Shown here: positions 5,476 through 56,357 of the stretch, one piece after another
Layout of the letters: the number at the start of each line of letters is the position of its first letter
How positions within the stretch are numbered: position 1 is the first letter of the stretch
DNA from: a virus
Virus record (IMG/VR): IMGVR_UViG_3300033153_001808
Span: 1 to 61,947 of that record
Length of the DNA: 61,947 bases
Reading direction: 5' to 3' (one strand)
Position numbers and translations under genes: made by a program
Notes under the pieces: model-generated
What the model saw: the letters and a program-made list of their open reading frames with translations, nothing else
Told to the model about the DNA's origin: nothing
Database searches by the model: none

Positions 5476-5477
5476 AA

Positions 5478-5687: not shown

Positions 5688-5691
5688 AAGT

Positions 5692-6303: not shown

Positions 6304-6317
6304 AAGGAGGTAGGAAG

Positions 6318-7777: not shown

Positions 7778-7826
7778 AACTGAGCATAAGGGGGTGTAGT
7801 AGAGAACTACAAAAAGCCGGGAGGGA

Positions 7827-8090: not shown

Positions 8091-8137
8091 ATGCAAGACA
8101 CAGAAACCATAAACACTCAAACAGGAGGACATTAACC

Positions 8138-29194: not shown

Positions 29195-30454
29195 TTAGTT
29201 CAATATATTTGCATCTTCTAGTCTGTCTTCTAGTTCTTTAAGTCTTTCATGAAGCTGTATTATATAAAGAGCTTGTTCTTCTGATTTTATGATTAACTCC
29301 TGTGCGGCTTTTCCAAGACTCATCTTGTCTTGATTTCTATTTACAGTCATACCAGGAAGTTGAGTATTAGCGGCTATGTAATTACTCATCTCATTTATTG
29401 ACATCAAGTCATAATCATCCTCAAACACAAAATCAGTACAAGTCACTATACCACAACTTGATACAATCTGTCCTTTCACAGTCAAATCACAAGAACCGTC
29501 AGCAGCTATCGCTATATCCATCATTTCATTAGTACCAGTACCAAAATTATTTGCACATCTAAACCAATATAGTCGACTTCCAACTAGATAATTCAATACA
29601 CAACGACTTCCAGACGAACTGTTTGTATCTTCTATATAAACACCAGGAGTAGCGGCATGACCTACTCTAAACTGCCCAGCTGTTGAAATCTGTACATTAT
29701 TAGCTCCACTATAATACCCACGTGAAGTTATATTACCCACCATGTCTATAGCAAAAGCAGAGTGCCCACTGGTATCAGTTAAGTTATTCCTGTCCTCAAT
29801 AGTAAAAGCCTTTCTAGTAGTATGTGTCAATGAATCAAAAGGAAAAACTCTAATCCCCTCAGAATCAGCATCAGTACCTACACCGGCAGCTATAGCTATA
29901 CCACCACCATGAGTTGCGTTCCAGTTAGTTGCAAGCAATCCAGTTTGAGCACCATGTACGTCACATTCAATAGCAACACCATGATTTCTGGCTATAGGAG
30001 TGTTTGAAAGTGTTGTACCAGTTATAGTTCTTAACGCCGATGGAACCTCACTACTATACACAGGATCGTATTTCTGAAAGGTTGCCGCGTTTCCATAACC
30101 CCATTCGGACGAGACTATTCCAGAAGAGTCTCCGCCGTTATCAACATCACTGTAGTGGAAGATTATTATTCCAGAGCTTATTTGTTTAGTATAAGGAGGC
30201 ACATCAGGGTCAACATTATAAGTGACGACCGAATTAACATTCTCAATCCATAAAGAAGTCTTCACACAATTAGTAAGTTTATTAAGAATAAAGGCTGTAT
30301 GAGAATAAAAACCCGAGTAAGATGGACTAAAAGAACCATTAGCATAACCTCCACCACTACTAGGTTCAATGATTATGTAACTAGGATTATGAGCAGTAGC
30401 ATCAATAGCCAACTCAGCATCTTTATTAATTATTAAAGGATCACCAGTTGCCAT
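29195..30454 (-). CDS. Tail fibre protein with C-terminal coiled coil
   Basis: This 419-residue protein starts MATGDPLIINKDAELAID, then a long Ser/Asn-rich beta region, a GYYSGANNVQISTAGQFRVG receptor-like repeat, and a helical C-terminus (SLGKAAQELIIKSEEQALYI, then a heptad coiled coil). The final part resembles the S74-type intramolecular chaperone region, although the catalytic Ser-Lys pair was not clearly found. TAATG couples it to the preceding gene. Confidence 0.65.
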   Translation of the reverse strand: MATGDPLIINKDAELAIDATAHNPSYIIIEPSSGGGYANGSFSPSYSGFYSHTAFILNKLTNCVKTSLWIENVNSVVTYNVDPDVPPYTKQISSGIIIFHYSDVDNGGDSSGIVSSEWGYGNAATFQKYDPVYSSEVPSALRTITGTTLSNTPIARNHGVAIECDVHGAQTGLLATNWNATHGGGIAIAAGVGTDADSEGIRVFPFDSLTHTTRKAFTIEDRNNLTDTSGHSAFAIDMVGNITSRGYYSGANNVQISTAGQFRVGHAATPGVYIEDTNSSSGSRCVLNYLVGSRLYWFRCANNFGTGTNEMMDIAIAADGSCDLTVKGQIVSSCGIVTCTDFVFEDDYDLMSINEMSNYIAANTQLPGMTVNRNQDKMSLGKAAQELIIKSEEQALYIIQLHERLKELEDRLEDANILN

Positions 30455-31356
30455 TACCACACCTCCGTATCATGGTCTATATTAAACACATTACTATCCC
30501 AAGGACCTCTAGTTTCTAACCAAGGTCTTATTCGTCTAGGCAAGGAACTCGTACTAAGGTCTTCGATAATCATCTGTCTCATTAAGCCCTGGAACTCTGT
30601 CTGTGCATCCCTGGCCATCCCAATAAATGCGGGATTTTGCGTGACACCAAATGCTTGTCTATAGCAGTCCCACAAAGCTCCTGCTTCCAGAATCTCAGAT
30701 CTAAACACCGGCTCATCTGTATCAGCACTCAGATCACTAACCTTCTTCTTATAAAACACAGTAATTGCATAATCAGTATCCCCGGCGGGCCAGATCTCAA
30801 GACTTATGATCCCCAAAGCACTACTTTTACTAAACACACTCCAATAAAGTGGAGGTCCAGTAGACTCTCTCTCAGGATCTACAGTATTAAAATACTCTTT
30901 GGGTCTCTGTCCCATCTCTGTCTGGTACACAACCATCCGCACTTCGGCCACATCTCCAACCGCCGGACTGTATACCTGTGGCCAATGACTAAAATCCTGG
31001 GCAGTAGCATCATCTTCTGCATAGGAAGTCTCTAGTGTGAGCTGAGTAGTACTGTCCACAGAACTTATTACATAAGGCTGTGACTCACTTCCTATCCTGA
31101 ACAGATGCGCCGCAATTCCACTCCAGCTCGTACTAGTTCCAGTCACCGTGGTAGATCCCTGAGTCACAGCACAGCTCTCACTGCTTGTATTACTCACCTG
31201 CTCTTCAATTCTAATAACTGTTGAGTCATTCAAGAAAGCCCAGTCTTCTACACCTAAGATCTGTTGATACCTCACATTGATCCGCTGCTTTATGACCGGG
31301 ATACTAAGCATAGGTACAAATTGCCGGATATTTAAAGCCATTAACCTGAAGTTCAT
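30454..31356 (-). CDS. Adaptor-like virion protein with Ig-like insert
   Basis: This 300-residue protein has helical ends (VIKQRINVRYQQILGVEDW; EILEAGALWDCYRQAFG) and a beta-rich middle (AVTQGSTTVTGTSTSWSG). This is the same helix-beta-helix plan as the adaptor-like genes further on. GGAGAAG precedes the ATG. A dyad element lies directly upstream. Confidence 0.6.
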   Translation of the reverse strand: MNFRLMALNIRQFVPMLSIPVIKQRINVRYQQILGVEDWAFLNDSTVIRIEEQVSNTSSESCAVTQGSTTVTGTSTSWSGIAAHLFRIGSESQPYVISSVDSTTQLTLETSYAEDDATAQDFSHWPQVYSPAVGDVAEVRMVVYQTEMGQRPKEYFNTVDPERESTGPPLYWSVFSKSSALGIISLEIWPAGDTDYAITVFYKKKVSDLSADTDEPVFRSEILEAGALWDCYRQAFGVTQNPAFIGMARDAQTEFQGLMRQMIIEDLSTSSLPRRIRPWLETRGPWDSNVFNIDHDTEVW

Positions 31357-31394: not shown

Positions 31395-34300
31395 TTACAC
31401 ATTGTCAGCCCTACTTAGTTCTACCCAACCTCCACTAATACCCATTAACATAACAGTATCATAAGCACTATTAAAGGTAAAATTAGCCTGACACTGTATA
31501 TTACCCCCATCAGTCATGGTAAGACTAGACGTAGACCGTATGACCAAGAGATGTCCATCAGGCCCAGTTGATCCGTCTATAGTAGCACTATTAAAATTAG
31601 TACTCCCAGTTAGTAATATATTATGAGCATTACCTGTAATCACAAGTGTTCCAGCACTAGCTACACTACTTACCGCACCAAATTCTCCACCACCTCCAAC
31701 AGGGCTTGTTCCACTTGTACCCGCAGTACCACTTGTTCCATCTCCGCTTGTACCGCTTGTTCCGCCACCGCTAGTTCCACTCGTACCAACACCACTTGTC
31801 CCTGCCGTCCCACTTGTTCCTGCACTACCACTCGTTCCTGAACTCCCACTTGTACCGCTACTTCCACTCGTACCAGACGAACCGCTCGTTCCACTAGTAC
31901 CGGAAGTTCCACTCGAACCCGAAGTAATTCCAGAAGCACTTGTTCCGCTAGTACCCGAACTCCCGCTGGTTCCGCTTGTACCACTCGTTCCAGACGAGCC
32001 TGAACTTCCAGAAGTTCCACTTGTTCCACTACTACCTGATGTAATACCAGCAGCACTTGTGCCACTTGTACCTGAACTTCCGCTAGTCCCGCTTGTACCA
32101 CTAATTCCACTACTCCCACTTGTCCCAGATGTACCAGAAGTTCCCTGTATACCACCACCACTTGCAATCGCATAGTAACCAGCAACCGCACTCGGAAATG
32201 TCAACACAACATCATTAACCCCAGTAAATTCTATATTACTAGGTATAATAGTATTATAAGAACTATCTGTTACCTCTACTACAACAGGCTGGTAGCCTAG
32301 ATTATGATTTATATTCCAAGTAGTTGCTGAACCATTAGTACCGTAGAACGCCCCGGCAATAGCCTGTGTACCAGAAGTACCAGCAGTACCACTCGTGCCA
32401 GAACTACCACTTGTTCCAGCAGTACCAGAAGTCCCGCTACTACCAGAAGTACCACTACTTCCTGATGTACCTGATGTACCACTGCTACCAGAAGTAATAC
32501 CAGAAGCACTTGTTCCAGAGGTCCCACTACTTCCACTAGTTCCACTCATACCACTTGTACCTGAACTCCCGCTTGTGCCTGATGTTCCACTTGATCCAGA
32601 ACTTCCTGATGTACCACTCGTACCGCTAGATCCCGATGTACCGCTAGTTCCACTAGATCCACTAGTACCAGATCCACTCGTACCAGACGTCCCTGATCCA
32701 CTCGTACCACTTGAACCAGCCGTTCCGCTTGTTCCAGAACTCCCACTAGTACCAGACGTACCGCTACTTCCTGCTGTACCAGACGTTCCACTAGAACCGG
32801 AGGTCCCACTAGATCCGCTAGTACCTGAGGTCCCCGAACTTCCACTACTACCAGAAGTTCCACTCGATCCACTAGAACCAGAGGTAACACCAACACCACT
32901 CGTTCCTGAGGTTCCGCTAGTACCACTGGTGCCTCCACCACTTGCCATAGCATAATAGCCACTAACAGCACTTGGAAAGGTTAGAGTAACTGTATCTATA
33001 TCGTCAAAACTTATATTACTAGGTATAATAGTATTATAACTATCGTCAGTTACTTCCACCACAACAGGTTTATAACCTAGACTATGAACTATTGTCCAGC
33101 TAGTACTTGCAGCTCCTTGAGTTCCATAAAATCCTCCAGCCACCGCTTGGGTTCCACTTGTTCCGGCGGTTCCACTTGTACCAGAACTACCAGAAGTACC
33201 ACTAGAGCCAGACGTACCAGAAGTCCCACTAGAACCTGATGTACCACTACTACCACTTGTTCCAGAAGTACCAGATGAACCGCTAGAACCAGAAGTACCA
33301 CTCGTTCCACTGCTTCCAGATGTACCGCTTGTACCGGAACTTCCACTCGTACCGCTAGTCCCACTAGAACCAGAACTCCCACTTGAACCAGAGGTCCCAC
33401 TAGTACCTGAACTACCACTTGTCCCACTGGTACCTGAACTCCCTGATGTTCCACTACTTCCAGAAGTACCTGAGGTCCCACTTGATCCAGAAGTCCCTGA
33501 GGAACCGCTTGTACCACTTGAGCCAGATGTTCCACTAGAACCAGAGGTTCCGCTTGTGCCACTACTACCAGACGTGATTCCGGTGGCTGATGTACCAGAG
33601 GTTCCAGAACTTCCACTTGTTCCTGAGGTTCCAGCTGTTCCTGAGGTTCCACTAGATCCACTTGTTCCTGCTGTACCACTGGTTCCACTACTACCAGATG
33701 TACCAGATGTTCCACTACTCCCAGACGTACCGCTGGTTCCACTCGAACCAGACGTTCCGCTACTCCCAGATGTACCAGAAGTACCTGAACTGCCTGACGT
33801 ACCTGAAGTACCGCTAGATCCGGCAGTTCCTGATGTACCACTAGATCCGGCTGTGCCTGAGGTACCAGAACTCCCACTCGTACCACTTGATCCACTAGTC
33901 CCGCTTGATCCGCTGGTGCCACTAGTTCCACTCGATCCTGATGTACCAGACGAACCAGAAGAGCCAGAACTTACACCAACACCAGAGGTACCAGACGTTC
34001 CTGATGTACCAGAACTTCCAGAAGTCCCTGATGTACCCGATGTACCACTAGTTCCACTAGTTCCTGATGATCCTGACGAGCCACTAGAACCAGAACTTAC
34101 ACCCGAGCCAGAGGTACCAGATGTACCAGCTGTACCGGAAGTACCACTAGATCCACTACTCCCACTTGACCCACTAGTACCTGCTGTTCCAGACGAACCA
34201 CTTGTTCCTGATGTACCTGAACTACCGGATGTTCCACTTGTACCACTAGTGCCTATAGCACTTGTACCAGATGTCCCACTAGTACCACCCGTACCAGAAG

Positions 34301-34571
34301 TGACACCGACCCCACTAGTACCACTTGTACCTGATGTTCCACCAGTACCAGAAGTCGATACCACACTATCAGCATACGCCTTAATAGCTCCTTCTGTAAC
34401 CAAGCTAGTATTACTAGTACCTAAACTAGTGCTAGAAGAAATCTCACTAATGGCAACAGAAGTAGCATCATCTTCAAATGTACCCCCATCCAATATAACC
34501 TTTCCACCAGCAGAATAGGTATGTTCAGCGGTTATAGTGGCATCAATAGTAGTCGTTAATGTCGTAGGCAT
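31395..34571 (-). CDS. Giant Gly-Thr-Ser repeat fibre (collagen-like)
   Basis: The 1058 residues have an N-terminal 77-residue head (ends TEGAIKAYADSVVSTSG) and then three blocks of Gly-Xaa-Yaa triplets, about 390, 190 and 155 residues. Xaa is Thr, Ser or Ala and Yaa is nearly always Ser. The blocks are separated by two copies of a 65-residue beta domain (LGYKPVVVEVTDDSYNTIIP in the first, LGYQPVVVEVTDSSYNTIIP in the second). A C-terminal 95-residue beta domain (GHLLVIRSTSSLTMTDGG) may bind the receptor or cap the trimer. There is no Pro in the triplets, unlike normal collagen. About two thirds of the residues in the blocks are Ser or Thr, ideal for O-glycosylation. The glycosyltransferase megagene ends 12 bases upstream. 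Confidence 0.88.
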   Translation of the reverse strand: MPTTLTTTIDATITAEHTYSAGGKVILDGGTFEDDATSVAISEISSSTSLGTSNTSLVTEGAIKAYADSVVSTSGTGGTSGTSGTSGVGVTSGTGGTSGTSGTSAIGTSGTSGTSGSSGTSGTSGSSGTAGTSGSSGSSGSSGTSGTAGTSGTSGSGVSSGSSGSSGSSGTSGTSGTSGTSGTSGSSGTSGTSGTSGVGVSSGSSGSSGTSGSSGTSGTSGSSGTSGSSGTSGSSGTSGTAGSSGTSGTAGSSGTSGTSGSSGTSGTSGSSGTSGSSGTSGTSGSSGTSGTSGSSGTSGTAGTSGSSGTSGTAGTSGTSGSSGTSGTSATGITSGSSGTSGTSGSSGTSGSSGTSGSSGTSGSSGTSGTSGSSGTSGSSGTSGTSGSSGTSGTSGSSGSSGSSGTSGTSGSSGTSGTSGSSGTSGTSGSSGSSGTSGTSGSSGTSGSSGTSGTSGSSGTSGSSGTSGTAGTSGTQAVAGGFYGTQGAASTSWTIVHSLGYKPVVVEVTDDSYNTIIPSNISFDDIDTVTLTFPSAVSGYYAMASGGGTSGTSGTSGTSGVGVTSGSSGSSGTSGSSGSSGTSGTSGSSGTSGSSGTSGTAGSSGTSGTSGSSGTSGTAGSSGTSGSGTSGTSGSGTSGSSGTSGTSGSSGTSGTSGSSGSSGTSGTSGSSGTSGMSGTSGSSGTSGTSASGITSGSSGTSGTSGSSGTSGSSGTSGTAGTSGSSGTSGTAGTSGTQAIAGAFYGTNGSATTWNINHNLGYQPVVVEVTDSSYNTIIPSNIEFTGVNDVVLTFPSAVAGYYAIASGGGIQGTSGTSGTSGSSGISGTSGTSGSSGTSGTSAAGITSGSSGTSGTSGSSGSSGTSGTSGTSGSSGTSGTSASGITSGSSGTSGTSGTSGSSGTSGSSGTSGSSGTSGSAGTSGTAGTSGVGTSGTSGGGTSGTSGDGTSGTAGTSGTSPVGGGGEFGAVSSVASAGTLVITGNAHNILLTGSTNFNSATIDGSTGPDGHLLVIRSTSSLTMTDGGNIQCQANFTFNSAYDTVMLMGISGGWVELSRADNV
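31690..34350 (-). repeat. Nine-base coding repeats of the fibre gene
   Basis: The stretch encodes hundreds of GTS/GSS/GAS triplets, interrupted at about 32938-33165 and 32155-32365 by the two globular domains. Synonymous codons vary from triplet to triplet, so the protein repeat is kept while the DNA has drifted. This suggests selection on the protein and an old expansion, and not a recent slip. Confidence 0.8.
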
Positions 34572-34583
34572 TTTGTTACCCCG

Positions 34584-37500
34584 TTAAACTATGTTTGTAA
34601 GAATCTCACCAACAGCCTTTATTACAGTCTCAGGTTTGATGTTTTTACTGCACTCAAAATCCTTATTCTTAGGACACCAAGCCCAATTATCACGAGCAAA
34701 TGTCACACTACTATCATTAAAACACCCATGACAAACATCTTTGTTTATAATCCTATGATTACCAGATTGAAATTCACAAAACGGTTCACTGAAACCAGAG
34801 ACCATAACGACTGGCGTGTTGACCGCCCAACTTAACCAACTAAGACCAGAACCTACACCTAAAAACATTTTTGCTTTGGCTAACACATCTGCTACTTGAG
34901 TAATAGGTGAAGTATGTATTGGTGTGACATTCTTTAACTCTGTTCCTTCTTTGCCTATGGTTAAAACCTCTAAACCCTGCGAGGTTATATAATCAACCAC
35001 CTCTTGCCATCCACCTACATAGTTCCAATACTTAGCTTGCATAGTAGAATGTTCCGACAAGCATACATAATCTTTAGGTAATTTATGTTGATACTCACTC
35101 ATGGAAATTTTAGGTTTTAGTTCTTTATACTCCAATCCTAACATATCTGTGCCTACTTGCTGTAAAGGCACCGAGTTCCACGGATGTTTATTCTTATCAC
35201 TATCTCCATCAAAGACACCAACACCAAAAGACGCATATATATTAGGGGCAACGTCGCCAACCTTGGTGAAGTCTATATTAGGATACACAGATTCAAACAA
35301 CTCATTCCACCAAGTAGCTGTTACAATACTACATTTATGTTCTTTTGCAAATGCTTCAAGATAAGGAAACCAAGCAATAGTATCACCTAAAGACTTACTA
35401 TCCATCCAAATTAAGACACGTTGTCCTATTGGATCGAATCTATGTGAAACTAATGTTTTATCAGTCTTGGTGTCTGTTACTCTAACTAGCCAATTACTGC
35501 AATACTTCCGACCAGGTCTAGCCCATTCACCACTACCTAAGATAGTACCATACATAGACCTACCAATATCTGAGTCAACAAAGTCAACCTTGTATTGACC
35601 ACCATTTGGACCTTGAACTTCACAATACGGACCATCTACAAAATGTACAGTTACATCTACATTATCGCTTCTACATAAATACAACATCTGTATGTGGTCA
35701 TTATCACCAAGGTATAATGTATAAGCAGAAAATCCGGCATTTGTTAGTCTGGTCAATAACTCAGTTCTCAATTCTGCTTTGAAGTCAAACAACATATTAT
35801 GATATTCTATACATATTTTTTGTACCTTAGCAAGATTATCGTCTGACAAACCAGCAAATAAATCCAACTCCGAACCTTCTATATCTACCTTTAAGTAATT
35901 AATCACATCCAGACCAAGCTCTCCAATCATGTGATCTAATGTGACTAGTTCTATTTGAACTGACTCACCTGTTTTAGTGTTATTTATATTATTATCTTTT
36001 ACACTATGTCCGCCCTCACAAGAGTGGATAAAAAGCTCTGAAATTCCGGCTTTGTTGGATATACCCAACTCTGATTTCCATGACTCCACATTCTTCTCCA
36101 AAGCACTATAATTATCTGGCTCTGGTTCAAAAGAATATACCTCACTAGCACCCATTTCTTTTGCGTATCGTGCAAATACACCTATATTACCACCACAATC
36201 TACTACAACATCCCCAGGTTCTATTTTACATCTACCATGTTCGTATGTCTTATCAACAAAGATCTCATGATATACACCACTAAAAGTATCAATTCCATCG
36301 ACAGATATATCAACAGGCTCAGTAGAATTTGGCAAATAATACTTAGTTCTTTCTAACTCAACCTTTTCAGTAGGCACTAAATACCTCTCGTACATTTCCT
36401 TTAATACCTTAGGATCATGTTGACAGTGCATTAACCACACACCAGACTTTTCTGGAATGTGTATATGTTCTGATAACCCACCTGCCAACACTGGCATGTA
36501 TTCACTGTAACTTTCTTGCCACTCTGCTGTGAAGAACTTATCAAAATACTTAGGCCAATATATGTCATAGATATGAACTCCTAATTGTTCTGTGGCTTCA
36601 TACTTCCATAGCATTAAGTTCATAAAAATCTCATCACCTAAAGGGCCGGACTTTTCTACCAACTCCTCAGGGGTAAGTTCATCTTTCCACTTCAGTACAT
36701 CTAACATGAATTGCTTACAGTTCTTATCAAACAAGAACATACAAGCCTGTACCCAAGGAGACATAGACCTCTCAGAGATTCCGAATTTTGTCTTTAGTTC
36801 CTCAAACCCAGGTGCTGGTATACCATTAGTTTGTACAACTACATGGTCATAGATATGCGAGGCAAAAAGCGGGTAATTATTTAACCTACCTACAGAGTCC
36901 CATATCCTGTCTATGCTTTCCGTACAAAAACTATCCCCATCTATCCAAGCATAATGACTACCTTCCACATTCTCTATTGCGTCTAGACCACATAATAATT
37001 TACAAAAATAAGAATCAACTGCTCGACCATCAGGCAGGGTAGCTTTTGAGGTAAAATCAATACGTCTTTTCTGCATACGTGGTAAGTCAAAAGGTATATC
37101 ACAACCAAAACCATAAACCACGATCTGTGCAGTAGAAAATTTCAACAGACTACTAACACAAGTTTCAATCAAAGGCATATAATTTGAATCACCACCAAGA
37201 ACAAATACAGGCTTCAAGGACTTTGCAATAGTAAAACCACCTACAATATCCTCGCAGACGTAGTCCTTTGTTAACATATGAAAGAAGCCAATTTCTGTAT
37301 TGTCAACCAGAGTTAGCTTTCCATCAAGCCATGTTGCGTTATCTTGTGTCTTCTCGTGTTGGAAGTTCTGTCCATTTAGTATTATCTCAAGTTTTACATC
37401 CTCTTCAATAAGTTTATCACTCCACATACTTTCATCAAAGTTAGTGTACTTGTCTGTCTCATCAAGCATGGATTGAAAACCAGGGGTGGAAGCATATAAC

Positions 37501-40500
37501 TCCCGCATCTTGGGTGTGTTATGTACTAGAGTACAAGGCCCGGCAACTCTATAATGCAGTCCGTCTTTGGTTGAACCACCAAAAGTAATCACATCGTAGT
37601 CTTGTTCCATATACTTATTAAAGAATCCATCCAACTTACCCCAAATAACATCAAGATCACAGAAACCCCAATAATCATAATCTTTGAGATACCCATCATA
37701 AATATGTCCATATAAAGGTTTATAATCACACAACTTATACGACACACCTATACGCACTTTATGGTCTATTGTACGACTAGCAAGTTGTTCAAATGATAAT
37801 TTAGTCTGGTCTATAAAACTAACATTCTCTGGATACTCATGTGGAGCCTGTTGATCACTAAATATCAACCAATCAAACTCTGGATTCTCAGCACAAGAAC
37901 ATAAGAACATATAAAACCAATCAGGAAAGGGTCCAAGCCAAGTAACCACAAATGCTGCTTTTTGTTGATTGTTTAAATCATCAACTAATTCGTCCAACAA
38001 TTCCCCGCCATTTCCGTTGCCATGCCACACCAAGGTCTGCTTGTTTACTTCATCTTTGGTTGTATTACCCAGTGTTTGAAACATCTCACAATCTACATCT
38101 CTGATAATCTTATGACCATTAGCCATAAAATATTTAGTCAACAACCACTGATCGTTTCTACCATATAAGCCACCCTCTGTACCTAGTAAAGCCTCTGGTA
38201 GTTTGGTATACTTATCTACCATCGTATTTAGTGCATTATAAATAACACCAGCCGGACCCATATAAGTGCCGGAATTTACATACCTAAACTTCTCCTCTCC
38301 AGGTGGGTAGTTCTCAGCTAGACTCCTATCTGGATACAGATTCTTTTCAGCACCTACAACAATATACGACTCTGGTACTGCTTTCGTGTACACAGACGTG
38401 TTTTTATCTGCTTGTCTGTGATAAGCCTGTATTAACTCAGTCTCATTTCCTAGTAAGTAACTATCAAAACCATCCAAGAATAGTACCAACTGCTTCTTAG
38501 GCAGAGTTGAAACATAATCCCTCATGTGGATGAACTTGGTTATAAAATCTCCCCACTCTACTCCAGCACCCAAGACCTCAAGCTCCATACCTTGTGCTGT
38601 GACAGACTCAACCAACCTATCAAGCCCGGAGTTTGTATGATTAGCGAATGTAACAACCTTTAATAACTTAGCTCCACTATCAGACTCTCTACTAAACGTA
38701 GCCTGTGAAGCAAAATCAAACAAAGGCAAGTCAAACATACGCCTAAAGCAGACCTTATTATTATGAGAAACCGTCAACACTTCACCCTTTTGATACTTAT
38801 TCTGTAGTTCTTCTAATCCAACACTACCAGGCTCAACACTCAACTCTAACCTCTCACCAGAATATTCAACCACACAGTCAAGCCTCTTAGCCCCACGATT
38901 ATCTATACCTATAACCATAGCACCAACATAATTAGCACCTATTGAATAAGTCACATCTACCATAGTATCTACTTCCCGTGCAGACTCAGAACCACCAAAA
39001 GCTCTCCAACGGTCTATAGCTAACCAATCTTTAGGTCTAGTAGTATTAACCTCCACTGCGTCGTATTTTCTAAATGCCTCTAGTAATGTATACTCTAACT
39101 GAGTAGCAACTAATCTACCAACATAATACTCCTCTGGAGTTTTGTACTCACTAAAAACCTCAAGACCTTTTTTGACTGAAAAAGAGAAAACTCCACTCTC
39201 CATTTCTTCATAAGGTACATGATGATTATTTGGTTTGATATAACATAAATCATTTCCAACCACCGGAGCTATGAGTGTATTCAACCACACATCATTATCT
39301 ATGTCCACGTCATATTCTATATAATGAACATAGTCCTTTGATTTCATTATATCTGTATTCAATGCGTTACGTATATTAGTCCATATAGCATAATCATATA
39401 ACCAAGGAGCCTCTGTGTCTACTCTTAAACCCCCCGATTGAATCCATAATCTTGCATCTAGACTAATTTTATAGTAATCTTCTTTATACATAAGTGGATT
39501 ATGAGAATCAAACACATAATAATCCACATACTGCTGTAACCTACTAGGTATTGGTTTATGTGATACTAACATAACATCAAAGCCTAGAGACTTTGCCTTG
39601 ACTACACGTTCATGAAGTAAATCTTCTTGGGCATCAGATACACACCAAGCACCTATAACAACAATATGTTTCTCAGCTAAACTGACTGCCCAACTAGAGT
39701 CTGAATAATGTTTGAGTTTATACTCACCTAAGGTATTGTCAACCGCTGGCCTGACTCCATCTGCGCCGGGATTTACGTTTCTATGAAAATAGTCATGCCC
39801 ACACATAATACCCTTAGGTTTTAGTTTAGGCATCCACGCTAGTATGTCAGCACACACAGCATCATAATCATGTGCAGCGTCCACATAAACTAAGTCCAAC
39901 GAACTGTCTTCAAACCTCTGTGCAGCAGGAACTGATTGACTTCTGATCTTCTCTACGTTTCCAGCTCTATACTGCATCTGCTCAAACCTAGCTTGTGCCA
40001 TCAAGATATTAGTTATGTCTCCATAACAATCCTGCCATTCGTCAACTCCATAAACCTTCTTAGCTCTAGAGGCAAAGACTTCTGTACTAACTCCACCAAA
40101 ACAACCTAATTCTACCATTACGGTGTCTTTAGTAATATAATCATCCGCAAGTTCAAATAGTCCTGCTGTAGTATTCCACGGAACCATCTCTGTTTCAACA
40201 CCACGCCACTTTATTCTAGATTGAGTACGTAGTCTAGTTTCTTTTTCTGTAGTACTCTCGTCAAAATCCCCGAATTTTTTAATCACACTAAAAGACTTCT
40301 CGGCGGCAGATTCCCACGAGAACCTATCTCTCACTTCACACGAAGCGGCAAGAGCTTCTTGTATACGATTTATATCTATCGGATCACGGACTTGATTATA
40401 CAAACTTCGCATTATTTCTCTCAGATGATTGAAGTCTGGCTCTGCCCACATACCAGGAAACTGACTTCCTACCGGATAGGTCTCCTGTGGTGGTTTCATC

Positions 40501-41351
40501 TCTTTAATACGCACTTTATGCACACCCAACAAATCTCCGGCGTATTCTAGTTGTCCACCAAAATCCGAACATATACTTGGTAATCCACACGCTACTGCTT
40601 CTATAAGGGGTAGATTCCAACCCTCGGCACGAGAACAACTCACAAACACATCACTATATTTTAGATAATCTGCATAAGTATTACGTGGAGGGAAATGTAA
40701 AATTTCCAACTTAGGACTCATCAAGCCATGATGTTCTAAGCGTTCTTCTGTAGTCTCAAACCCATCTATAGAGAAACTATTATCTACAGAAATAGCCATA
40801 CCTACATTGGTGTCGCGTTCAAACTCAACCAAAAAAGCCTGGATAATCTCCGTAGTGCTTTTCCTATATTCCCACCTACCAAAAAGCAGAAACCTAAAAT
40901 CATCTGTTCTGCCATTCATAGGTTGGAATAACTCTCCATCAACACCTTCTGGTATAACCTTGACCCGATCTTCTGGGTATCCTTGGTCTATACTACATTG
41001 TCTCTGCCACTCACTAGGAACCCATAATTGGTCATACTCTAACAACCTAGCAAAGAACTCATCTGGTTGACGTGTACTTTCCCATACATTGTAAGCTATT
41101 TTTGGGCTTGGTATATCCTCATAAAAAACCGGGTGACCAGTTACCTCCAAGACAATATGTAAAACATTTGAACCAATTATCCTATTAATCATTTCCTGTT
41201 GTTCATCAGACAACTCAGTCGTATCATCAACTGTTGTACTCACGATACCTACAGGAACAAACTTATTGAGAGCAGTAAAAAACTCTCGCGCATGGTTGGC
41301 ATATCCTGTATGCCCCATGAAACTTGTATGTCCTAACACTAAATCGTACAT
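34584..41351 (-). CDS. Eight-module glycosyltransferase/methyltransferase megaprotein
   Basis: The 2255 residues are an assembly line. (1) 1-365: GT4-type transferase (AYNVWESTRQPDEFF, IPEGVDGELF, FVSCSRAEGWNLPLIEAVAC). (2) 380-555: SAM methyltransferase (VELGCFGG 413-420; YVDAAHDYDA). (3) 560-790: transferase-like region with EYDVDID at 679-685. (4) 895-1110: PLOD-type glycosyltransferase (LFLDGFDS 957-964; YVNSGTYMGP). (5) 1130-1375: DUF6625-like (GFCDLDVIWG). (6) 1378-1655: GT-A-like (YAWIDGDSF). (7) 1680-1895: FkbM methyltransferase (VVDCGGNIGVF, FEPEP, LKVDIEGSE). (8) 1898-2255: TibC/Aah-type O-heptosyltransferase (FVDGPY, WARPGRKY, SLGDTIAWFPY; iron-finger cysteines 2207, 2210, 2226, 2234). 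GGAGG precedes the ATG. It lies 12 bases before the Ser/Thr-rich fibre, its likely substrate (inference). Confidence 0.88.
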   Translation of the reverse strand: MYDLVLGHTSFMGHTGYANHAREFFTALNKFVPVGIVSTTVDDTTELSDEQQEMINRIIGSNVLHIVLEVTGHPVFYEDIPSPKIAYNVWESTRQPDEFFARLLEYDQLWVPSEWQRQCSIDQGYPEDRVKVIPEGVDGELFQPMNGRTDDFRFLLFGRWEYRKSTTEIIQAFLVEFERDTNVGMAISVDNSFSIDGFETTEERLEHHGLMSPKLEILHFPPRNTYADYLKYSDVFVSCSRAEGWNLPLIEAVACGLPSICSDFGGQLEYAGDLLGVHKVRIKEMKPPQETYPVGSQFPGMWAEPDFNHLREIMRSLYNQVRDPIDINRIQEALAASCEVRDRFSWESAAEKSFSVIKKFGDFDESTTEKETRLRTQSRIKWRGVETEMVPWNTTAGLFELADDYITKDTVMVELGCFGGVSTEVFASRAKKVYGVDEWQDCYGDITNILMAQARFEQMQYRAGNVEKIRSQSVPAAQRFEDSSLDLVYVDAAHDYDAVCADILAWMPKLKPKGIMCGHDYFHRNVNPGADGVRPAVDNTLGEYKLKHYSDSSWAVSLAEKHIVVIGAWCVSDAQEDLLHERVVKAKSLGFDVMLVSHKPIPSRLQQYVDYYVFDSHNPLMYKEDYYKISLDARLWIQSGGLRVDTEAPWLYDYAIWTNIRNALNTDIMKSKDYVHYIEYDVDIDNDVWLNTLIAPVVGNDLCYIKPNNHHVPYEEMESGVFSFSVKKGLEVFSEYKTPEEYYVGRLVATQLEYTLLEAFRKYDAVEVNTTRPKDWLAIDRWRAFGGSESAREVDTMVDVTYSIGANYVGAMVIGIDNRGAKRLDCVVEYSGERLELSVEPGSVGLEELQNKYQKGEVLTVSHNNKVCFRRMFDLPLFDFASQATFSRESDSGAKLLKVVTFANHTNSGLDRLVESVTAQGMELEVLGAGVEWGDFITKFIHMRDYVSTLPKKQLVLFLDGFDSYLLGNETELIQAYHRQADKNTSVYTKAVPESYIVVGAEKNLYPDRSLAENYPPGEEKFRYVNSGTYMGPAGVIYNALNTMVDKYTKLPEALLGTEGGLYGRNDQWLLTKYFMANGHKIIRDVDCEMFQTLGNTTKDEVNKQTLVWHGNGNGGELLDELVDDLNNQQKAAFVVTWLGPFPDWFYMFLCSCAENPEFDWLIFSDQQAPHEYPENVSFIDQTKLSFEQLASRTIDHKVRIGVSYKLCDYKPLYGHIYDGYLKDYDYWGFCDLDVIWGKLDGFFNKYMEQDYDVITFGGSTKDGLHYRVAGPCTLVHNTPKMRELYASTPGFQSMLDETDKYTNFDESMWSDKLIEEDVKLEIILNGQNFQHEKTQDNATWLDGKLTLVDNTEIGFFHMLTKDYVCEDIVGGFTIAKSLKPVFVLGGDSNYMPLIETCVSSLLKFSTAQIVVYGFGCDIPFDLPRMQKRRIDFTSKATLPDGRAVDSYFCKLLCGLDAIENVEGSHYAWIDGDSFCTESIDRIWDSVGRLNNYPLFASHIYDHVVVQTNGIPAPGFEELKTKFGISERSMSPWVQACMFLFDKNCKQFMLDVLKWKDELTPEELVEKSGPLGDEIFMNLMLWKYEATEQLGVHIYDIYWPKYFDKFFTAEWQESYSEYMPVLAGGLSEHIHIPEKSGVWLMHCQHDPKVLKEMYERYLVPTEKVELERTKYYLPNSTEPVDISVDGIDTFSGVYHEIFVDKTYEHGRCKIEPGDVVVDCGGNIGVFARYAKEMGASEVYSFEPEPDNYSALEKNVESWKSELGISNKAGISELFIHSCEGGHSVKDNNINNTKTGESVQIELVTLDHMIGELGLDVINYLKVDIEGSELDLFAGLSDDNLAKVQKICIEYHNMLFDFKAELRTELLTRLTNAGFSAYTLYLGDNDHIQMLYLCRSDNVDVTVHFVDGPYCEVQGPNGGQYKVDFVDSDIGRSMYGTILGSGEWARPGRKYCSNWLVRVTDTKTDKTLVSHRFDPIGQRVLIWMDSKSLGDTIAWFPYLEAFAKEHKCSIVTATWWNELFESVYPNIDFTKVGDVAPNIYASFGVGVFDGDSDKNKHPWNSVPLQQVGTDMLGLEYKELKPKISMSEYQHKLPKDYVCLSEHSTMQAKYWNYVGGWQEVVDYITSQGLEVLTIGKEGTELKNVTPIHTSPITQVADVLAKAKMFLGVGSGLSWLSWAVNTPVVMVSGFSEPFCEFQSGNHRIINKDVCHGCFNDSSVTFARDNWAWCPKNKDFECSKNIKPETVIKAVGEILTNIV

Positions 41352-41645: not shown

Positions 41646-41768
41646 TCATCCACACTCATAAATCCACTCATATTTCTCACGCTTTTTTTGTTGACGTCTG
41701 ATCCACCAATCACGTATGGCTATTAAGTCAAGGCTAAATGAGTACTCTAAAGGTCTACGGTTCCACAT
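41646..41768 (-). CDS. Small Trp-rich basic protein
   Basis: This 40-residue frame (MWNRRPLEYS, then IAIRDWWIRRQQKKR) starts inside the last codons of the response-regulator gene and is composed like a real gene. It may associate with membranes or nucleic acids through its amphipathic WWIRRQQKKR part. No family is recognised. Confidence 0.5.
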   Translation of the reverse strand: MWNRRPLEYSFSLDLIAIRDWWIRRQQKKREKYEWIYECG

Positions 41769-42126
41769 CGAAAGACTCCTTAACCACACGAAGTAGTTCA
41801 GTCGTAGCTACTGGCTTGGCTATTACCGCCGAGAATCCGTTCTGCAACCCATAATCCGGTTTAAACATCTCGAAATTTCCACTCACACAAATCACCTGAG
41901 TTTTAGGCTCAAGGGTTATTAACTGTTTGCATATTTCGTTTCCTGGTAGTGAATGTAATCCCAAATTAAGATCCATAATCACAACCCTTGGCTGATGTTC
42001 AAAAAACAAGTCAAACGCATTTATGTCATCTCTTGCTGTTAAAACCTCATATCCAGCTTTTTCAAGTATTGCTTTATACAGTTCCCGCAAATTCTCCTGA
42101 TCTTCAACTACTAATACTTGTTCCAT
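41755..42126 (-). CDS. Stand-alone response-regulator receiver (CheY-like)
   Basis: The 123 residues form one receiver domain with every catalytic residue: acidic pair E8-D9, phosphoacceptor D52 (VVIMDLNL), S82 (VICVSGN) and K104 (VIAKP). No output domain follows. The start at 42126 overlaps the previous stop as TAATG, with GGAG upstream; a longer frame to 42189 is not needed. In phages such a domain could accept phosphate from, or compete with, a host kinase. It sits among lysis-region genes. No partner kinase is visible. Confidence 0.85.
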   Translation of the reverse strand: MEQVLVVEDQENLRELYKAILEKAGYEVLTARDDINAFDLFFEHQPRVVIMDLNLGLHSLPGNEICKQLITLEPKTQVICVSGNFEMFKPDYGLQNGFSAVIAKPVATTELLRVVKESFDVEP

Positions 42127-42335
42127 TACTCTACACTCCTGGCAAGCCAGACTAAAATAGCCACGCACACTCCACCGATTGCCCCCCATGCTCCAGACTT
42201 GACTTTCAGACTAACTATGTCCTTCCCAATCTTTATCACTTCTTTATTTAGATTATCGTAGCAGTCATTCAGCCTTTCCAATTCTTTTAAGACAAACTTA
42301 GACCAACTCTCCCAATCATCATTATTACCTGTCAT
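42126..42335 (-). CDS. Holin-like or haemolysin XhlA-type membrane protein
   Basis: This 69-residue protein has an acidic and helical N-terminus (DDWESWSKFVLKELERLNDC), a coiled part, and one C-terminal membrane helix (AWGAIGGVCVAILVWLA). The layout is that of XhlA-type holin partners. The ATG at 42335 has AAGGGG seven bases upstream and is preferred over a GTG at 42341. Lies next to the cupin gene and the receiver gene. Confidence 0.6.
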   Translation of the reverse strand: MTGNNDDWESWSKFVLKELERLNDCYDNLNKEVIKIGKDIVSLKVKSGAWGAIGGVCVAILVWLARSVE

Positions 42336-42337
42336 AA

Positions 42338-42742
42338 TCACACCCCTTTAGGGGCTTGGGGCCAGCCCGTAGTTTGAGGGATTGTAATAGCAAGAAGCCA
42401 ACAGTCACCTTCTGGAATTAATACTTCATGCTCAACACCCGGATCTATTTCTAAACAGTCACCCACATTGAGGATATGGACCTGCTCGGCAACGGTTACT
42501 TCCATTATACCTTTGTAGACAAGAAACATCTCTGTCTCATCATGAGCATGGAGAGGTGACATAGACCCCGCAGACATGAAGACTTTGGCACAACTTATGG
42601 CAGGCTCGTTTAGTAGACCGAAACTCAGTGATGTACCTTTAATCATAGTATTCTGACGAATACTTGGAGAATACGTTTCCTTAGAAGAAAACGATAATTT
42701 CTCAGTTAAGTTCCTTAATTCCGGCATAAACGAGTTTGCCAT
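42338..42742 (-). CDS. Cupin-fold protein
   Basis: This 134-residue protein contains the full cupin motif 1 (G59, H65-A-H67, E71, G78 in GSMSPLHAHDETEMFLVYKG) and motif 2 with P-G and H105. The four metal ligands, three His and one Glu, are all present, so an enzyme or sugar-binding role is possible. In a late phage cluster with glycosyltransferases it could act on nucleotide sugars, but this is speculative. GGAG lies before ATG 42742; ATG 42754 (TAATG) is an alternative. Confidence 0.75.
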   Translation of the reverse strand: MANSFMPELRNLTEKLSFSSKETYSPSIRQNTMIKGTSLSFGLLNEPAISCAKVFMSAGSMSPLHAHDETEMFLVYKGIMEVTVAEQVHILNVGDCLEIDPGVEHEVLIPEGDCWLLAITIPQTTGWPQAPKGV

Positions 42743-42753
42743 AGCACACTCCA

Positions 42754-43251
42754 TTAGTCTTCCCATCCTTGACGTAGAATAACATCCCGGACTTCTTTAC
42801 AGAGTTTTTTAAAGGTTGCTTTGGAGTCTGTAAGATCGGTCCAGTTTGCGTCTATGTAGTCACCTATCTGCTGCTCCGTCTTGTTGTAGAAGACAGAATC
42901 CTTCATGTCATTTTCTGCTGTGACACGTTTGATTGACCATGAAGCTGTGAACGGGACTTTGTCTATAACACCAGAGGGATTAGTATGCCCGTCTGCTATC
43001 CATTGAGTGAACTTTTCAAGGTCCGTGTCACCTACGCTATCTTGATAGATGGCTCCTGGGTATTCTCTTTTTCTGATAAGCAATAAGTAATCATTTAATT
43101 TGTCATCAAGGTAATTCTGTAAATTTTGACCTTCAAGAACAGGTGTATTGCTGTGCCACAAATAAACCTCTGGAGTATCGTCAGTAAGAGTAAAGAACAC
43201 CACTTGTCTCTCATTGTCTATATTTCTTATCCCGTTTGCTTGTATATTCAT
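42754..43251 (-). CDS. Hypothetical late protein
   Basis: This 165-residue protein has alternating strands at its start (VVFFTLTDDTPEVYLW) and helices towards the end (FKKLCKEVRDVILRQGWED). No motif is recognised. Start ATG 43251 has AAAGGAG upstream. It stands between the CBM-like fibre and the cupin. Function unknown. Confidence 0.65.
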   Translation of the reverse strand: MNIQANGIRNIDNERQVVFFTLTDDTPEVYLWHSNTPVLEGQNLQNYLDDKLNDYLLLIRKREYPGAIYQDSVGDTDLEKFTQWIADGHTNPSGVIDKVPFTASWSIKRVTAENDMKDSVFYNKTEQQIGDYIDANWTDLTDSKATFKKLCKEVRDVILRQGWED

Positions 43252-50983: not shown

Positions 50984-51907
50984 TTAACTTACGTTAGAGA
51001 TGTAACCATTCCAACGAGGTGCACTACAGGCCAATAATCCGGCCCAAAGAGCTTGTCTAATCCAAGCATCCTGATTCAAAGGCACCTTTTTGTCGGTCCA
51101 ACTAAAGTTACGTTTCTTATGTACGACCATCTTCCAGAAATCTGTGTTCAGAACATAAATATATCCTGAGTTACAGTAGCTATCCACTACAATAGTGGCG
51201 TTATTGAATTTAATCCCACTAAAGCCAATATTCGCCAGGCCGGGACTATTATCAAGATTTCCCCGCTGTTGTGGTTGCACACGCAACCAGATTTTGTCAT
51301 AGATGTCCTGTGTGGTGATAATCAAATCCGGCTGAATTGCACCATCTGAACAGTCACCATACATACTCTGGAGCATGTCCATGTCAAAGGCTCCACCGGT
51401 TGTGTTCACATTACCCTGCCACCAGGAATAAGTTCCCTTTACGATTTCACCATACGTACCGCTTGTTGCGATAGCAGTGGTGAGTGGAATAATAGCTTTA
51501 GCACCCTGTGAAGCATAAAGTGCCTGACTAAAAGCCCTGCTGAAAGTCTTGGCCGCATTTTCCATTTTGGTTGCCACGATAGACAGAATTTTCTCATCTC
51601 CCTCAACCTTCAGAAGAGTAGTACCATCTATAGTAACATCTACGTATAACTGTTTCCAGTCAAATTTGGCCAGGGTTGTAGTCTCGACAGTATCTATGTT
51701 AAATGTATCAAGACCAGAATACCATCCATTCGGAAGATCCCCATATAAGACCGGAATATCTACCTGCTTACCTGAATCAAACACTACCTTACTTTTACTC
51801 ATCAACTGAGCCATGAGTGGAGTGGAGTAGTAGAACTGATCCATTAAAGTAGGTATATATTTATCCCGAACATGGGCATCAAGTTCGCTATAAGTTAATG
51901 CCGCCAT
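50984..51907 (-). CDS. Major capsid protein
   Basis: This 307-residue protein has a helical start (YSELDAHVRDKYIPTLMDQF), then YSTPLMAQLMSKSKVVFDSG and beta strands with PVLYGDLPNGWYSG. Its centre has a long helix (KMENAAKTFSRAFSQALYAS), and IQPDLIITTQDIYDKIW lies in the second half. The plan is that of the HK97-fold capsids (A and P domains). It directly follows a scaffold gene, lies in the head cluster, and has a normal length. AAGGAGATTG precedes the ATG. Confidence 0.88.
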   Translation of the reverse strand: MAALTYSELDAHVRDKYIPTLMDQFYYSTPLMAQLMSKSKVVFDSGKQVDIPVLYGDLPNGWYSGLDTFNIDTVETTTLAKFDWKQLYVDVTIDGTTLLKVEGDEKILSIVATKMENAAKTFSRAFSQALYASQGAKAIIPLTTAIATSGTYGEIVKGTYSWWQGNVNTTGGAFDMDMLQSMYGDCSDGAIQPDLIITTQDIYDKIWLRVQPQQRGNLDNSPGLANIGFSGIKFNNATIVVDSYCNSGYIYVLNTDFWKMVVHKKRNFSWTDKKVPLNQDAWIRQALWAGLLACSAPRWNGYISNVS

Positions 51908-54581: not shown

Positions 54582-56357
54582 TTATTGTGTTCTCCCCGCT
54601 GGACTAGCGTTTTTTTGTGTAGGAAACTGTGTTCCTCCTGCTCCTGCTGGTGGACCTACTTCTGGCACTTCTTCTGCCTCTCGTTTCTGACTCATCCTAG
54701 CCAAGACAGACCTTCTATGAGGATACTCTATATCTTCCAGAAGTGCGGGATCATCTATAACCTGCATCTCTCGTAACTTCATGGACTCGATTCTCTTTTG
54801 TACTTTTGCAAGTCCAAGACTTGATCCTGGTTCTATTTTGAATCCAACCTTTGTCCAAGCATCATCTTTGCGTTTTGATATAGGTTTTAAGAGTTCGCTA
54901 GTTATTGCTTGCATCGCAGCACTATCTATTCTGGTAGTTTCCTGTAAGACCTCCATGATCTTGTCTGGTTTGTAGAACTGAAAGATTCGAGAGATTAGTT
55001 TTCTACCAACTCGCTCTTGCATAGATTCAACTGCCCTCGCACGTAGGCGTATGAGTGCCTGGGCCATTAACTGCAAAGACTCTATACCTACACCAGAGCT
55101 GACTTGACCTGTTGCGTTTCCTCTCATGACGTCTATCATGCCGGTTATTTTTTCAGAAGCACCTACGAGACCTTGTACAGTCTCACCTACATATGAGGGT
55201 AAAGGAACTCCAGGCTCTCGGCGCAGTTCCCGCCCAGGACGTTTCTTTACATAAGTTCCCGGTGCACTATTTAACCTTGCCCACTCTTCTTTGGTGAGTG
55301 CATCTTGATCTCCAACCCAGATTGCATTACTCATCAGGGCTATGTTTTCCATGACTGTAGCGGTTATCTTGTTTATCAGTTCTTGGGGATTTTTCAATAA
55401 CTCAACATCACCCCAACCCCAAGCTGTGGAGAAATCTGTATGCCATGCAAGTAGATCAACCGGAAATTGACCATCGTTGTAGGGGTTGTCTCCGTCGTCT
55501 GCTATGAGGTCTCCGATCATGATGACTTTTCTGGCTCCGTTCTTAAATCTTAACTTCCCGTCCGTCTTTGATCTGTCTCTGAGCCAGAACTCCCGCACAT
55601 AAATCCGGGGAATTTCAGAACCTTGTTGTGCTTCTGGTCTTGTTTGCAGGATCTTAGACTTGATGGTACCAAAGAATCCCTTACTCTGTTCTCCCTGGAA
55701 GCGCACAAGACCTACGTCTGATTTAAATAGATCAGCTCTTTTGGGGTACATATCCTGGGCTTTACTTAATGGCCACACATCTTCTAGTATAACATACTCA
55801 CCTTCACATAAAAGGTAAGACTTCCTCACCAGAGGATCAAAGTATACTGCTCGTGGATCATAACTAGGTACTCCTATGTCTCCACGCCCACCGTCTCCGT
55901 CTGCATCGAATAAGGTTCCTATAGAGCCTGTCCCAAAGACCTGAGCATTTTCGACTACATCAACCATAGCTTGACTGAATGAACTGCCTTCAAAGATCAC
56001 GCTTATTAGAATATTTAAAATATCCGCAGTATCCTGTAAGGTATCACTCCTGGGCTGAACATCCGGGATTGGTTTGGTATCTGTCAAGAGAGCTGTCTTA
56101 CGTTCTATGTTCTCTATGAGATAATTTATAACCGCACTCACCTTATAAGCAGGTCTACGTGCAGGCCACTGAGCACCACGCAGGAACTGTGTATAAAGGT
56201 CCCAATTTCGGGAGACTTTAGCCTTTGATTGTGAGGCTTCTGTATAGAGATTAAGAAGTTTAATCCTGAACTCAGTCTCAGCAATACGTTCAGCTTCTTT
56301 GGTTAAGATCTGGAGTTTAGCAAAGTCTTCTATTTTTGTAGCTTCTGGTGTGGTCAT
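54582..56357 (-). CDS. Portal protein
   Basis: This 591-residue protein has helical stem regions and a beta-rich wing, as in P22-type portals. The N-terminus (SRNWDLYTQFLRGAQWPARR) with YLIENIERKTALLTDTKPIP is the usual portal start. The DPRAVYFDPLVRKSY strand, HTDFSTAWGWGDVELLKNPQ, and the C-terminal coil (VQKRIESMKLREMQVID) complete the pattern. It forms the dodecameric DNA gate. Length agrees with podovirus portals without a fused domain. Confidence 0.88.
   Translation of the reverse strand: MTTPEATKIEDFAKLQILTKEAERIAETEFRIKLLNLYTEASQSKAKVSRNWDLYTQFLRGAQWPARRPAYKVSAVINYLIENIERKTALLTDTKPIPDVQPRSDTLQDTADILNILISVIFEGSSFSQAMVDVVENAQVFGTGSIGTLFDADGDGGRGDIGVPSYDPRAVYFDPLVRKSYLLCEGEYVILEDVWPLSKAQDMYPKRADLFKSDVGLVRFQGEQSKGFFGTIKSKILQTRPEAQQGSEIPRIYVREFWLRDRSKTDGKLRFKNGARKVIMIGDLIADDGDNPYNDGQFPVDLLAWHTDFSTAWGWGDVELLKNPQELINKITATVMENIALMSNAIWVGDQDALTKEEWARLNSAPGTYVKKRPGRELRREPGVPLPSYVGETVQGLVGASEKITGMIDVMRGNATGQVSSGVGIESLQLMAQALIRLRARAVESMQERVGRKLISRIFQFYKPDKIMEVLQETTRIDSAAMQAITSELLKPISKRKDDAWTKVGFKIEPGSSLGLAKVQKRIESMKLREMQVIDDPALLEDIEYPHRRSVLARMSQKREAEEVPEVGPPAGAGGTQFPTQKNASPAGRTQ

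What the first reader, a model, noticed from the sequence alone, without database searches (positions are those of the whole stretch)
31395..41351. Proposed self-glycosylation system: megaenzyme and its Ser/Thr repeat fibre
The enzyme gene stops 12 bases before a fibre gene with hundreds of Gly-Xaa-Ser triplets. The C-terminal enzyme module belongs to the TibC/Aah family, which adds heptose to Ser-rich repeats of bacterial autotransporters. Enzyme type, substrate composition and gene order all agree. I infer that the phage decorates its own fibre with a multi-sugar, methylated glycan, perhaps to hide from receptors or antibodies, or to stabilise the fibre.
Basis: inference. Interest (0 to 1): 0.92.

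Follow-up and report, generated by a model that had tools for sequence, protein, structure and literature searches.

The report
Phage enzyme likely glycosylates its fibre
A phage carries, directly in front of a serine-packed collagen-like fibre gene, a giant enzyme whose last part belongs to a family that attaches sugars to serine repeats; related enzymes sit next to this same kind of repeat protein in many other phages and in some bacteria, so the phage probably sugar-coats its own fibre, which has not yet been shown by experiment.

Summary
A 2,255-aa enzyme (34584-41351, minus strand) ends 12 bases before a 1,058-aa Gly-X-Ser fibre (31395-34571). Its C-terminal module passes the curated TibC/Aah cut-off and keeps TibC's catalytic Asp and four iron-finger Cys. 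Further modules include at least three glycosyltransferases and two methyltransferases. The pairing is not chance. A Ser/Thr-rich collagen-like ORF lies within 10 kb of 46/80 viral TibC-like genes, against 0/120 random viral stretches. In reverse, 31/100 viral records with such a fibre carry TibC, against 0/100 random records and 0/50 with Lys/Pro-type collagen fibres. In one bacterial order, enzymes of the phage-type clade sit beside small Gly-Thr-Ser-repeat proteins (9/10), while canonical enzymes sit beside AIDA-type target repeats (4/5). Best reading: the TibC-like module O-glycosylates fibre serines; the other modules extend and methylate the glycan. Shown: homology, intact residues, linkage. 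Inferred: activity, substrate, donor sugar (perhaps not heptose; no heptose-synthesis genes found), presence in the virion, role. A known kind (protein O-heptosyltransferase), but apparently an undescribed phage clade with a different target repeat, here in an unusual eight-module fusion.

The parts
34584..41351 (-). 2255-aa multi-module glycosylation enzyme
   Evidence: Open reading frame; a GGAGG sequence lies upstream of the ATG; Pfam, NCBIfam, PHROG hits
40227..41351 (-). Module 1, aa 1-375: GT4/GT-B glycosyltransferase
   Evidence: PF00534 1.9e-11; phrog_2170 glycosyltransferase 1.4e-24
39789..40115 (-). Module 2, aa 413-521: Methyltransf_24
   Evidence: PF13578 1.8e-18
38727..39635 (-). 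Module 3 (X1), aa 573-875: undescribed module found in 41/80 viral TibC loci; possible divergent GT-A core plus low-confidence beta-rich tail
   Evidence: Profile hits in 41/80 TibC loci, 5/119 fibre loci, 0/120 random; model pLDDT 69, best PDB match a GT-A-fold protein at only E 1.6e-3
38052..38666 (-). Module 4, aa 896-1100: PLOD-type (collagen) glycosyltransferase domain
   Evidence: PF25342 GT_PLOD 3.3e-20; PDB R699 4.8e-6, human LH3 GT 0.0034
37338..37952 (-). Module 5, aa 1134-1338: DUF6625 (with DLD motif; GT-like by inference)
   Evidence: PF20330 5.5e-48; DLD at 1232
36282..37226 (-). Module 6 (X2), aa 1376-1690: GT-A-fold glycosyltransferase with invariant DxD (D1471, D1473)
   Evidence: No Pfam hit; invariant DxD and His in 12 aligned sequences; AlphaFold model pLDDT 77; Foldseek to blood-group GTB 6.8e-9 and glycogenin
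35727..36200 (-). Module 7, aa 1718-1875: FkbM methyltransferase
   Evidence: PF05050 6.2e-18, TIGR01444 6.9e-24
34605..35654 (-). Module 8, aa 1900-2249: TibC/Aah-type protein O-glycosyltransferase; D1990 = TibC D110; C2207, C2210, C2226, C2234 = iron finger
   Evidence: TIGR04414 260 bits over cut-off 200; 4rap 1.7e-45; residues
31395..34571 (-). 1058-aa Gly-(Thr/Ser)-Ser collagen-like fibre, proposed substrate
   Evidence: PF01391 2.5e-69; PHROG tail fibre 6.2e-60; repeat statistics
33147..34349 (-). Fibre repeat block 1 (aa 75-475)
32934..33146 (-). Non-repeat island 1 in the fibre (aa 476-546), similar to island 2
   Evidence: Sequence; phrog_21918 best stretch aa 484-545
32364..32933 (-). 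Fibre repeat block 2 (aa 547-736)
32154..32363 (-). Non-repeat island 2 in the fibre (aa 737-806)
   Evidence: Sequence; phrog_28944 best stretch aa 746-800
31785..32153 (-). Fibre repeat block 3 (aa 807-929)
30454..31356 (-). Next gene downstream: tail/SU10-adaptor-like protein, placing the pair inside the virion module
   Evidence: PF24175 7.7e-7; PHROG tail fibre 8.5e-7

Best explanation
The two genes are an enzyme-substrate pair. In the infected cell the TibC-like module transfers a sugar from a nucleotide donor, possibly ADP-heptose made by the host, to serines at the Y position of the Gly-(Thr/Ser)-Ser repeats of the neighbouring fibre. The other glycosyltransferase modules (GT4, PLOD-type, X2, probably DUF6625 and perhaps X1) extend this to a short glycan, and the two methyltransferase modules methylate it. 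The result is a densely glycosylated fibre on the virion. Shown here: homology, intact catalytic and iron-binding residues, repeat composition, and strong non-random linkage of this enzyme clade to this repeat class in phages and bacteria. Inferred: activity, site, donor, glycan length, presence in the virion, and role.
For: The module passes the curated TibC/Aah cut-off, with D110 and four iron-finger Cys conserved. In TibC, D110A is inactive and Ser, not Thr, is the modified residue (PMC4358343); here Y is Ser in 196/219 and never Thr. Linkage: ST-rich collagen-like ORF in 46/80 TibC loci vs 0/120 random stretches (p about 1e-23) and 3/59 terminase-anchored loci; 37 of 60 clusters at 90% identity. 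Reverse: TIGR04414 in 31/100 fibre records vs 0/100 random and 0/50 GPK-collagen records; 22/39 vs 0/13 for records of 50 kb or more; 11/14 vs 0/5 for 100 kb or more. Cellular counterpart: 9/10 enzymes of the ~300-bit group adjacent to a GTS-repeat protein, 0/5 canonical ones; 4/5 canonical ones adjacent to AIDA-type TIGR04415 repeat proteins. Tree: phage and GTS-linked cellular enzymes group together (SH-aLRT 98 with one Chloroflexi row), canonical outside.
Against: No activity, mass-spectrometry or virion data. The fibre lacks the known target repeat TIGR04415. The beta-hairpin thumb that TibC needs for its dodecamer is shortened by about 10 residues and loses Phe265, so assembly must differ. 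No gmhA and no rfaE-II over cut-off in this record or 49 related ones, so the donor must come from the host or is not ADP-heptose. Most fibre records, many of them fragments, have no TibC. The PLOD-type and DUF6625 modules were seen only in the window among the loci compared, so their targets are guesses.
Confidence: 0.74

Rival explanations
1. The enzyme modifies the host's surface glycans (LPS, O-antigen) to block superinfection; it lies beside the fibre only because host-interaction genes cluster in phage genomes.
For: This is the published reading of glycosyltransferases in the host-recognition clusters of pelagimyophages (PMC7029224). GT4, GT9-like and FkbM domains also occur in LPS and exopolysaccharide pathways.
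Against: The C-terminal module belongs to the protein O-glycosyltransferase family, not to the LPS heptosyltransferases (LPS heptosyltransferase I model 6.5e-6 vs TIGR04414 3.1e-77). General clustering of host-interaction genes does not predict linkage to Ser-rich and not to Lys/Pro-rich collagen fibres (0/50 records, 0/119 stretches), nor the bacterial chromosomal pairs outside any phage setting.
Confidence: 0.1
2. The TibC-like module glycosylates the fibre, but only with single sugars (heptose or hexose); the other modules act on other targets such as other virion proteins or host glycans.
For: TibC adds heptoses to serines (PMC4358343). Stand-alone TibC-like ORFs of about 400 aa are common in the viral loci and on bacterial chromosomes, so the other modules are not needed for the pairing. 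PLOD and DUF6625 modules are unique to this record among those compared.
Against: Fusion in one chain, and recurrent fusion of X1, X2, FkbM and GT4 modules with TibC in other phages, favours one assembly line.
Confidence: 0.25
3. The enzyme glycosylates other proteins (capsid, tail tube) or modified DNA bases, and the fibre is an unrelated neighbour.
For: Phage-encoded GTs glycosylate capsid and tail tube in mycobacteriophages and hypermodify DNA in other phages (as cited in PMC12619734).
Against: The same linkage statistics; canonical TibC relatives are next to their own Ser-rich repeat substrates.
Confidence: 0.06
4. Association through phage type only: large aquatic phages happen to carry both genes, with no functional tie.
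For: The random control is not matched for habitat or phage type; many TibC loci come from large contigs.
Against: Gene adjacency (12 pairs counted within 50 bp), recurrence in 37/60 clusters at 90% identity, only 3/59 in loci anchored on the Mel-JY01-type terminase, and the bacterial pairs.
Confidence: 0.08

Closest known systems
TibC/AAH bacterial autotransporter heptosyltransferases (BAHT, TIGR04414; PDB 4RAP, 4RB4)
   Same: Fold family, catalytic Asp, four-Cys iron finger, gene adjacent to a Ser-rich repeat protein
   Different: Phage-encoded; separate clade with about half the family score; shortened beta-hairpin thumb; fused to seven other modules; partner is a Gly-X-Ser collagen-like fibre, not a strand-loop-strand beta-helix; donor unknown
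Mycobacteriophage virion glycosylation by phage-encoded glycosyltransferases (Freeman et al. 2023, known here only through PMC12619734)
   Same: Phage encodes GTs that decorate its own virion proteins
   Different: Different target (capsid and tail-tube C-termini, not a collagen-like fibre); no TibC-type enzyme is named there
PLOD/LH3 and Mimivirus R699 collagen glycosyltransferases
   Same: One module here is homologous to their GT domain, and the partner is collagen-like
   Different: LH3 acts on hydroxylysine in Lys-containing collagen; this fibre has 3 Lys in 1058 residues and no hydroxylase domain was found in the enzyme
BclA of Bacillus exosporium (from own knowledge, not tested here)
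   Same: Works like: collagen-like triplets O-glycosylated with a multi-sugar glycan that includes methylated sugars
   Different: Thr in Gly-Pro-Thr triplets, different enzymes, bacterial spore surface

Membership tests
TIGR04414 TibC/AAH protein O-heptosyltransferase | Score above the curated cut-off | tested here: met
   260 vs 200 bits
TIGR04414 TibC/AAH protein O-heptosyltransferase | Catalytic Asp (TibC D110) | tested here: met
   D1990
TIGR04414 TibC/AAH protein O-heptosyltransferase | Four-Cys iron finger (C339, C342, C358, C370) | tested here: met
   C2207, C2210, C2226, C2234; 94 of 101 domains in the compared loci match the motif pattern
TIGR04414 TibC/AAH protein O-heptosyltransferase | Beta-hairpin thumb with Phe265-Val266 for dodecamer assembly | tested here: not met
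   Gaps of 4 and 6 residues at this place; Phe265 absent. Described as highly conserved in BAHTs (PMC4358343), so this counts against a TibC-type ring, not against the fold
TIGR04414 TibC/AAH protein O-heptosyltransferase | Partner with strand-loop-strand target repeats (TIGR04415) | tested here: not met
   No TIGR04415 hit in this fibre or in four related Gly-X-Ser proteins; canonical partners do have it. It works like a BAHT with another target
TIGR04414 TibC/AAH protein O-heptosyltransferase | Uses ADP-D,D-heptose | not testable with these tools
   No heptose-synthesis genes over cut-off in the record
Collagen triple helix (PF01391) | Long uninterrupted Gly-X-Y runs | tested here: met
   219 triplets; PF01391 2.5e-69
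Collagen triple helix (PF01391) | Pro/Hyp-rich X and Y positions | tested here: not met
   No Pro in the triplets; may be a polyglycine-type or glycan-stabilised helix
Phage tail fibre | Similarity to tail-fibre families and place in the structural module | tested here: met
   PHROG hits (partly driven by the repeat) and neighbours
Phage tail fibre | Presence in the virion | not testable with these tools
   Needs proteomics

The most novel reading that the evidence does not exclude
An undescribed, widespread phage-centred clade of TibC-like enzymes glycosylates Gly-(Thr/Ser)-Ser collagen-like proteins, with single-chain assembly lines such as this one building a methylated multi-sugar glycan on phage fibres; some bacteria (methanotroph relatives) carry the same pair on their chromosomes with small secreted proteins as targets.
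Probability: 0.6. Interest if true: 0.87.

Novelty: new variant of a known kind. Interest (0 to 1): 0.8.

Why it matters
Glycosyltransferases near phage fibres have been explained as tools to alter the host surface or to protect DNA. The data here point, for one large clade, to the phage's own fibre, and give a sequence rule (Ser at Y of Gly-X-Y) and simple enzyme-substrate pairs, including small bacterial ones, that make virion glycosylation in aquatic phages directly testable. It also suggests that TibC-type enzymes act on a second, structurally different class of Ser-rich repeat.

Tried and rejected
tblastn of the fibre against phages gave no match, as BLAST's low-complexity filter is on. 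A full-length enzyme scan of viral contigs found one locus; the TibC-module alignment found hundreds. Genes next to fibres in records without TibC show few other GTs (2 GT families, one member each, of 80 neighbours), so I do not claim that every such fibre has a glycosylation enzyme; control neighbours showed none in the listed families. Heptose-synthesis genes: none over cut-off. X1 fold search inconclusive. The idea that the PLOD-type module works as in animal collagen (on hydroxylysine) was dropped: the fibre has almost no Lys.
Full report
Observation. The window is a 61,947-base IMG/VR virus record. On the minus strand, within the structural module (terminase 58789-60552, portal 54582-56357, major head protein 50984-51907, then the present pair, then adaptor- and tail-like genes from 31356 downwards), lies a 2,255-aa ORF (34584-41351) whose stop is 12 bases before the ATG of a 1,058-aa ORF (31395-34571). 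The second protein is 77% Ser, Gly and Thr. It has 219 Gly-X-Y triplets in runs of five or more; X is Thr or Ser in 212, Y is Ser in 196, never Thr and never Pro. Its longest run is 47 triplets; 1,000 shuffles of the same composition reached at most 10.

The enzyme. In order: GT4; Methyltransf_24; an unassigned module X1; a PLOD-type glycosyltransferase; DUF6625; an unassigned module X2; an FkbM methyltransferase; and a TibC/Aah module over its curated cut-off. The last aligns with TibC over 325 residues at 1.7e-45, keeps D110 and Cys339/342/358/370, but has lost about ten residues of the beta-hairpin thumb with Phe265 (residue roles from PMC4358343). In TibC's substrate Ser and not Thr was found modified (same paper), which fits a repeat that offers Ser, never Thr, at Y; this is a fit, not a test. 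X2 has an invariant DxD in 12 aligned sequences and an AlphaFold model (pLDDT 77) matching GT-A enzymes such as blood-group GTB and glycogenin. X1 recurs in 41 of 80 viral TibC loci and resembles the GT-A fold only weakly. The PLOD-type module's nearest solved relatives are R699 (the Mimivirus collagen glycosyltransferase, by my own knowledge of the name) and human LH3; the fibre has almost no Lys, so it cannot act here as LH3 does on hydroxylysine, and may extend a Ser-linked sugar (inference).

Is the pairing real? I took 80 viral loci around TibC-like genes, 119 loci around a Gly-Thr-Ser DNA pattern, 120 random viral stretches from an arbitrary 14-mer, 59 loci around the terminase of a fibre-bearing phage, and 119 loci around a Gly-Pro-Lys collagen pattern. 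A Ser/Thr-rich collagen-like ORF (60% or more Ser/Thr in X and Y) is in 46/80 TibC loci, 0/120 random and 3/59 terminase loci. After clustering TibC domains at 90% identity, 37/60 clusters remain positive. Ten to twelve pairs are within 60 bases. In whole records, TIGR04414 over cut-off is in 17/50 and 14/50 fibre records, 0/50 and 0/50 random ones, and 0/50 Gly-Pro-Lys ones. Among records of 50 kb or more, counted by hand from those tables, it is 22/39 against 0/13, and for 100 kb or more 11/14 against 0/5 (Fisher tests). So the association is strong, specific for Ser/Thr-rich triplets, and becomes stronger in longer records. It is not obligatory. Caveats: the random control is not matched for habitat, the fibre pattern samples only one codon choice (the window itself does not match it), some TibC and fibre loci are the same contig, and related phages are not independent.

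Known phages. Microcystis phage Mel-JY01 has a GT4-MT-TibC fusion at 4750-8430 and, 1.7 kb upstream on the same strand, a Gly-X-Ser fibre ORF (2-3049); GenBank annotates two hypothetical proteins on the opposite strand there. A 735-kb phage (LR756501) has a GT4-TibC fusion and a Gly-Thr-Ser fibre with a further large glycosyltransferase-like gene between them.

Bacteria. In genome contigs, TibC-like genes of Methylomicrobium, Methylobacter, other Methylococcaceae and a Polaromonas MAG lie directly beside a small protein with a signal-peptide-like start and a Gly-Thr-Ser run. A survey of 251 genomes of the order of the Methylomicrobium genome separates two groups: ~650-bit enzymes (5 examined), of which four adjoin large proteins with the known heptosylation-target repeat TIGR04415 and none a Gly-Thr-Ser protein; and ~300-bit enzymes (10 including the five that started the survey), nine of which adjoin a Gly-Thr-Ser protein (p = 0.002). 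One of those four large proteins lies beside a second ~650-bit copy in the same genome. In a tree, all phage enzymes and the Gly-Thr-Ser-linked bacterial ones fall together (SH-aLRT 98, with one Chloroflexi sequence), apart from the canonical ones; the bacterial Gly-Thr-Ser group lies inside the phage group, though the inner order is weak. Thus which Ser-rich repeat stands next to the enzyme follows the enzyme's clade. I regard this as the best evidence that the repeat is the substrate.

Mechanism. Shown: family, residues, predicted fold of X2, linkage. Inferred: the TibC-like module primes Ser at Y; GT modules extend; methyltransferases methylate; the product is a glycosylated fibre. Donor unknown: no gmhA and no rfaE-II over cut-off in 50 records with this enzyme including this one, so ADP-heptose would have to come from the host, and a host without heptose would need another sugar. 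Role (stability of a proline-free collagen-like helix, shielding, receptor binding) is open.

Literature. In the held library I found no paper that links TibC-type enzymes with phages or with Gly-X-Ser fibres; subscription papers are mostly missing. The published view of glycosyltransferases beside phage fibres is modification of the host O-chain (PMC7029224). Virion glycosylation by phage GTs is known from mycobacteriophages (cited in PMC12619734; the original is not held).

Verdict. A well-supported, untested enzyme-substrate pair; a new variant of a known kind of protein glycosylation, in an unusual single-chain form.

Noticed in passing
L532 11202-11912, L533 8899-9777, L534 8924-9901, L536 8838-9800, L531 11130-11444: Bacterial TibC-like genes sit directly beside small secreted-looking proteins with a Gly-Thr-Ser run; a compact test pair independent of phages.
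   Followed up: yes
L003 (PP395634.1) 1-2298: GenBank annotates two minus-strand hypothetical proteins in Microcystis phage Mel-JY01 where a 1016-aa plus-strand Gly-X-Ser fibre frame, reaching the start of the record, lies; probably misannotated.
   Followed up: partly
window 38727-39635: Module X1 has no Pfam hit yet occurs in 41 of 80 viral TibC loci, fused or separate: a candidate new glycosylation-associated domain.
   Followed up: partly
window 41755-42189 and 42338-42766: A stand-alone response-regulator receiver protein and a cupin protein lie just upstream of the enzyme gene; an odd pair inside a structural module.
   Followed up: no
window 5692-6303 and 10310-11560: A VWA-domain protein, and a fusion of a ParB N-terminal domain with a DNA methylase, among the plus-strand genes.
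   Followed up: no
window 32395-32955 and 33556-34518, + strand: Long open Pro-Leu-Val frames antisense to the fibre repeat; by-products of the repeat that gene callers may annotate.
   Followed up: no
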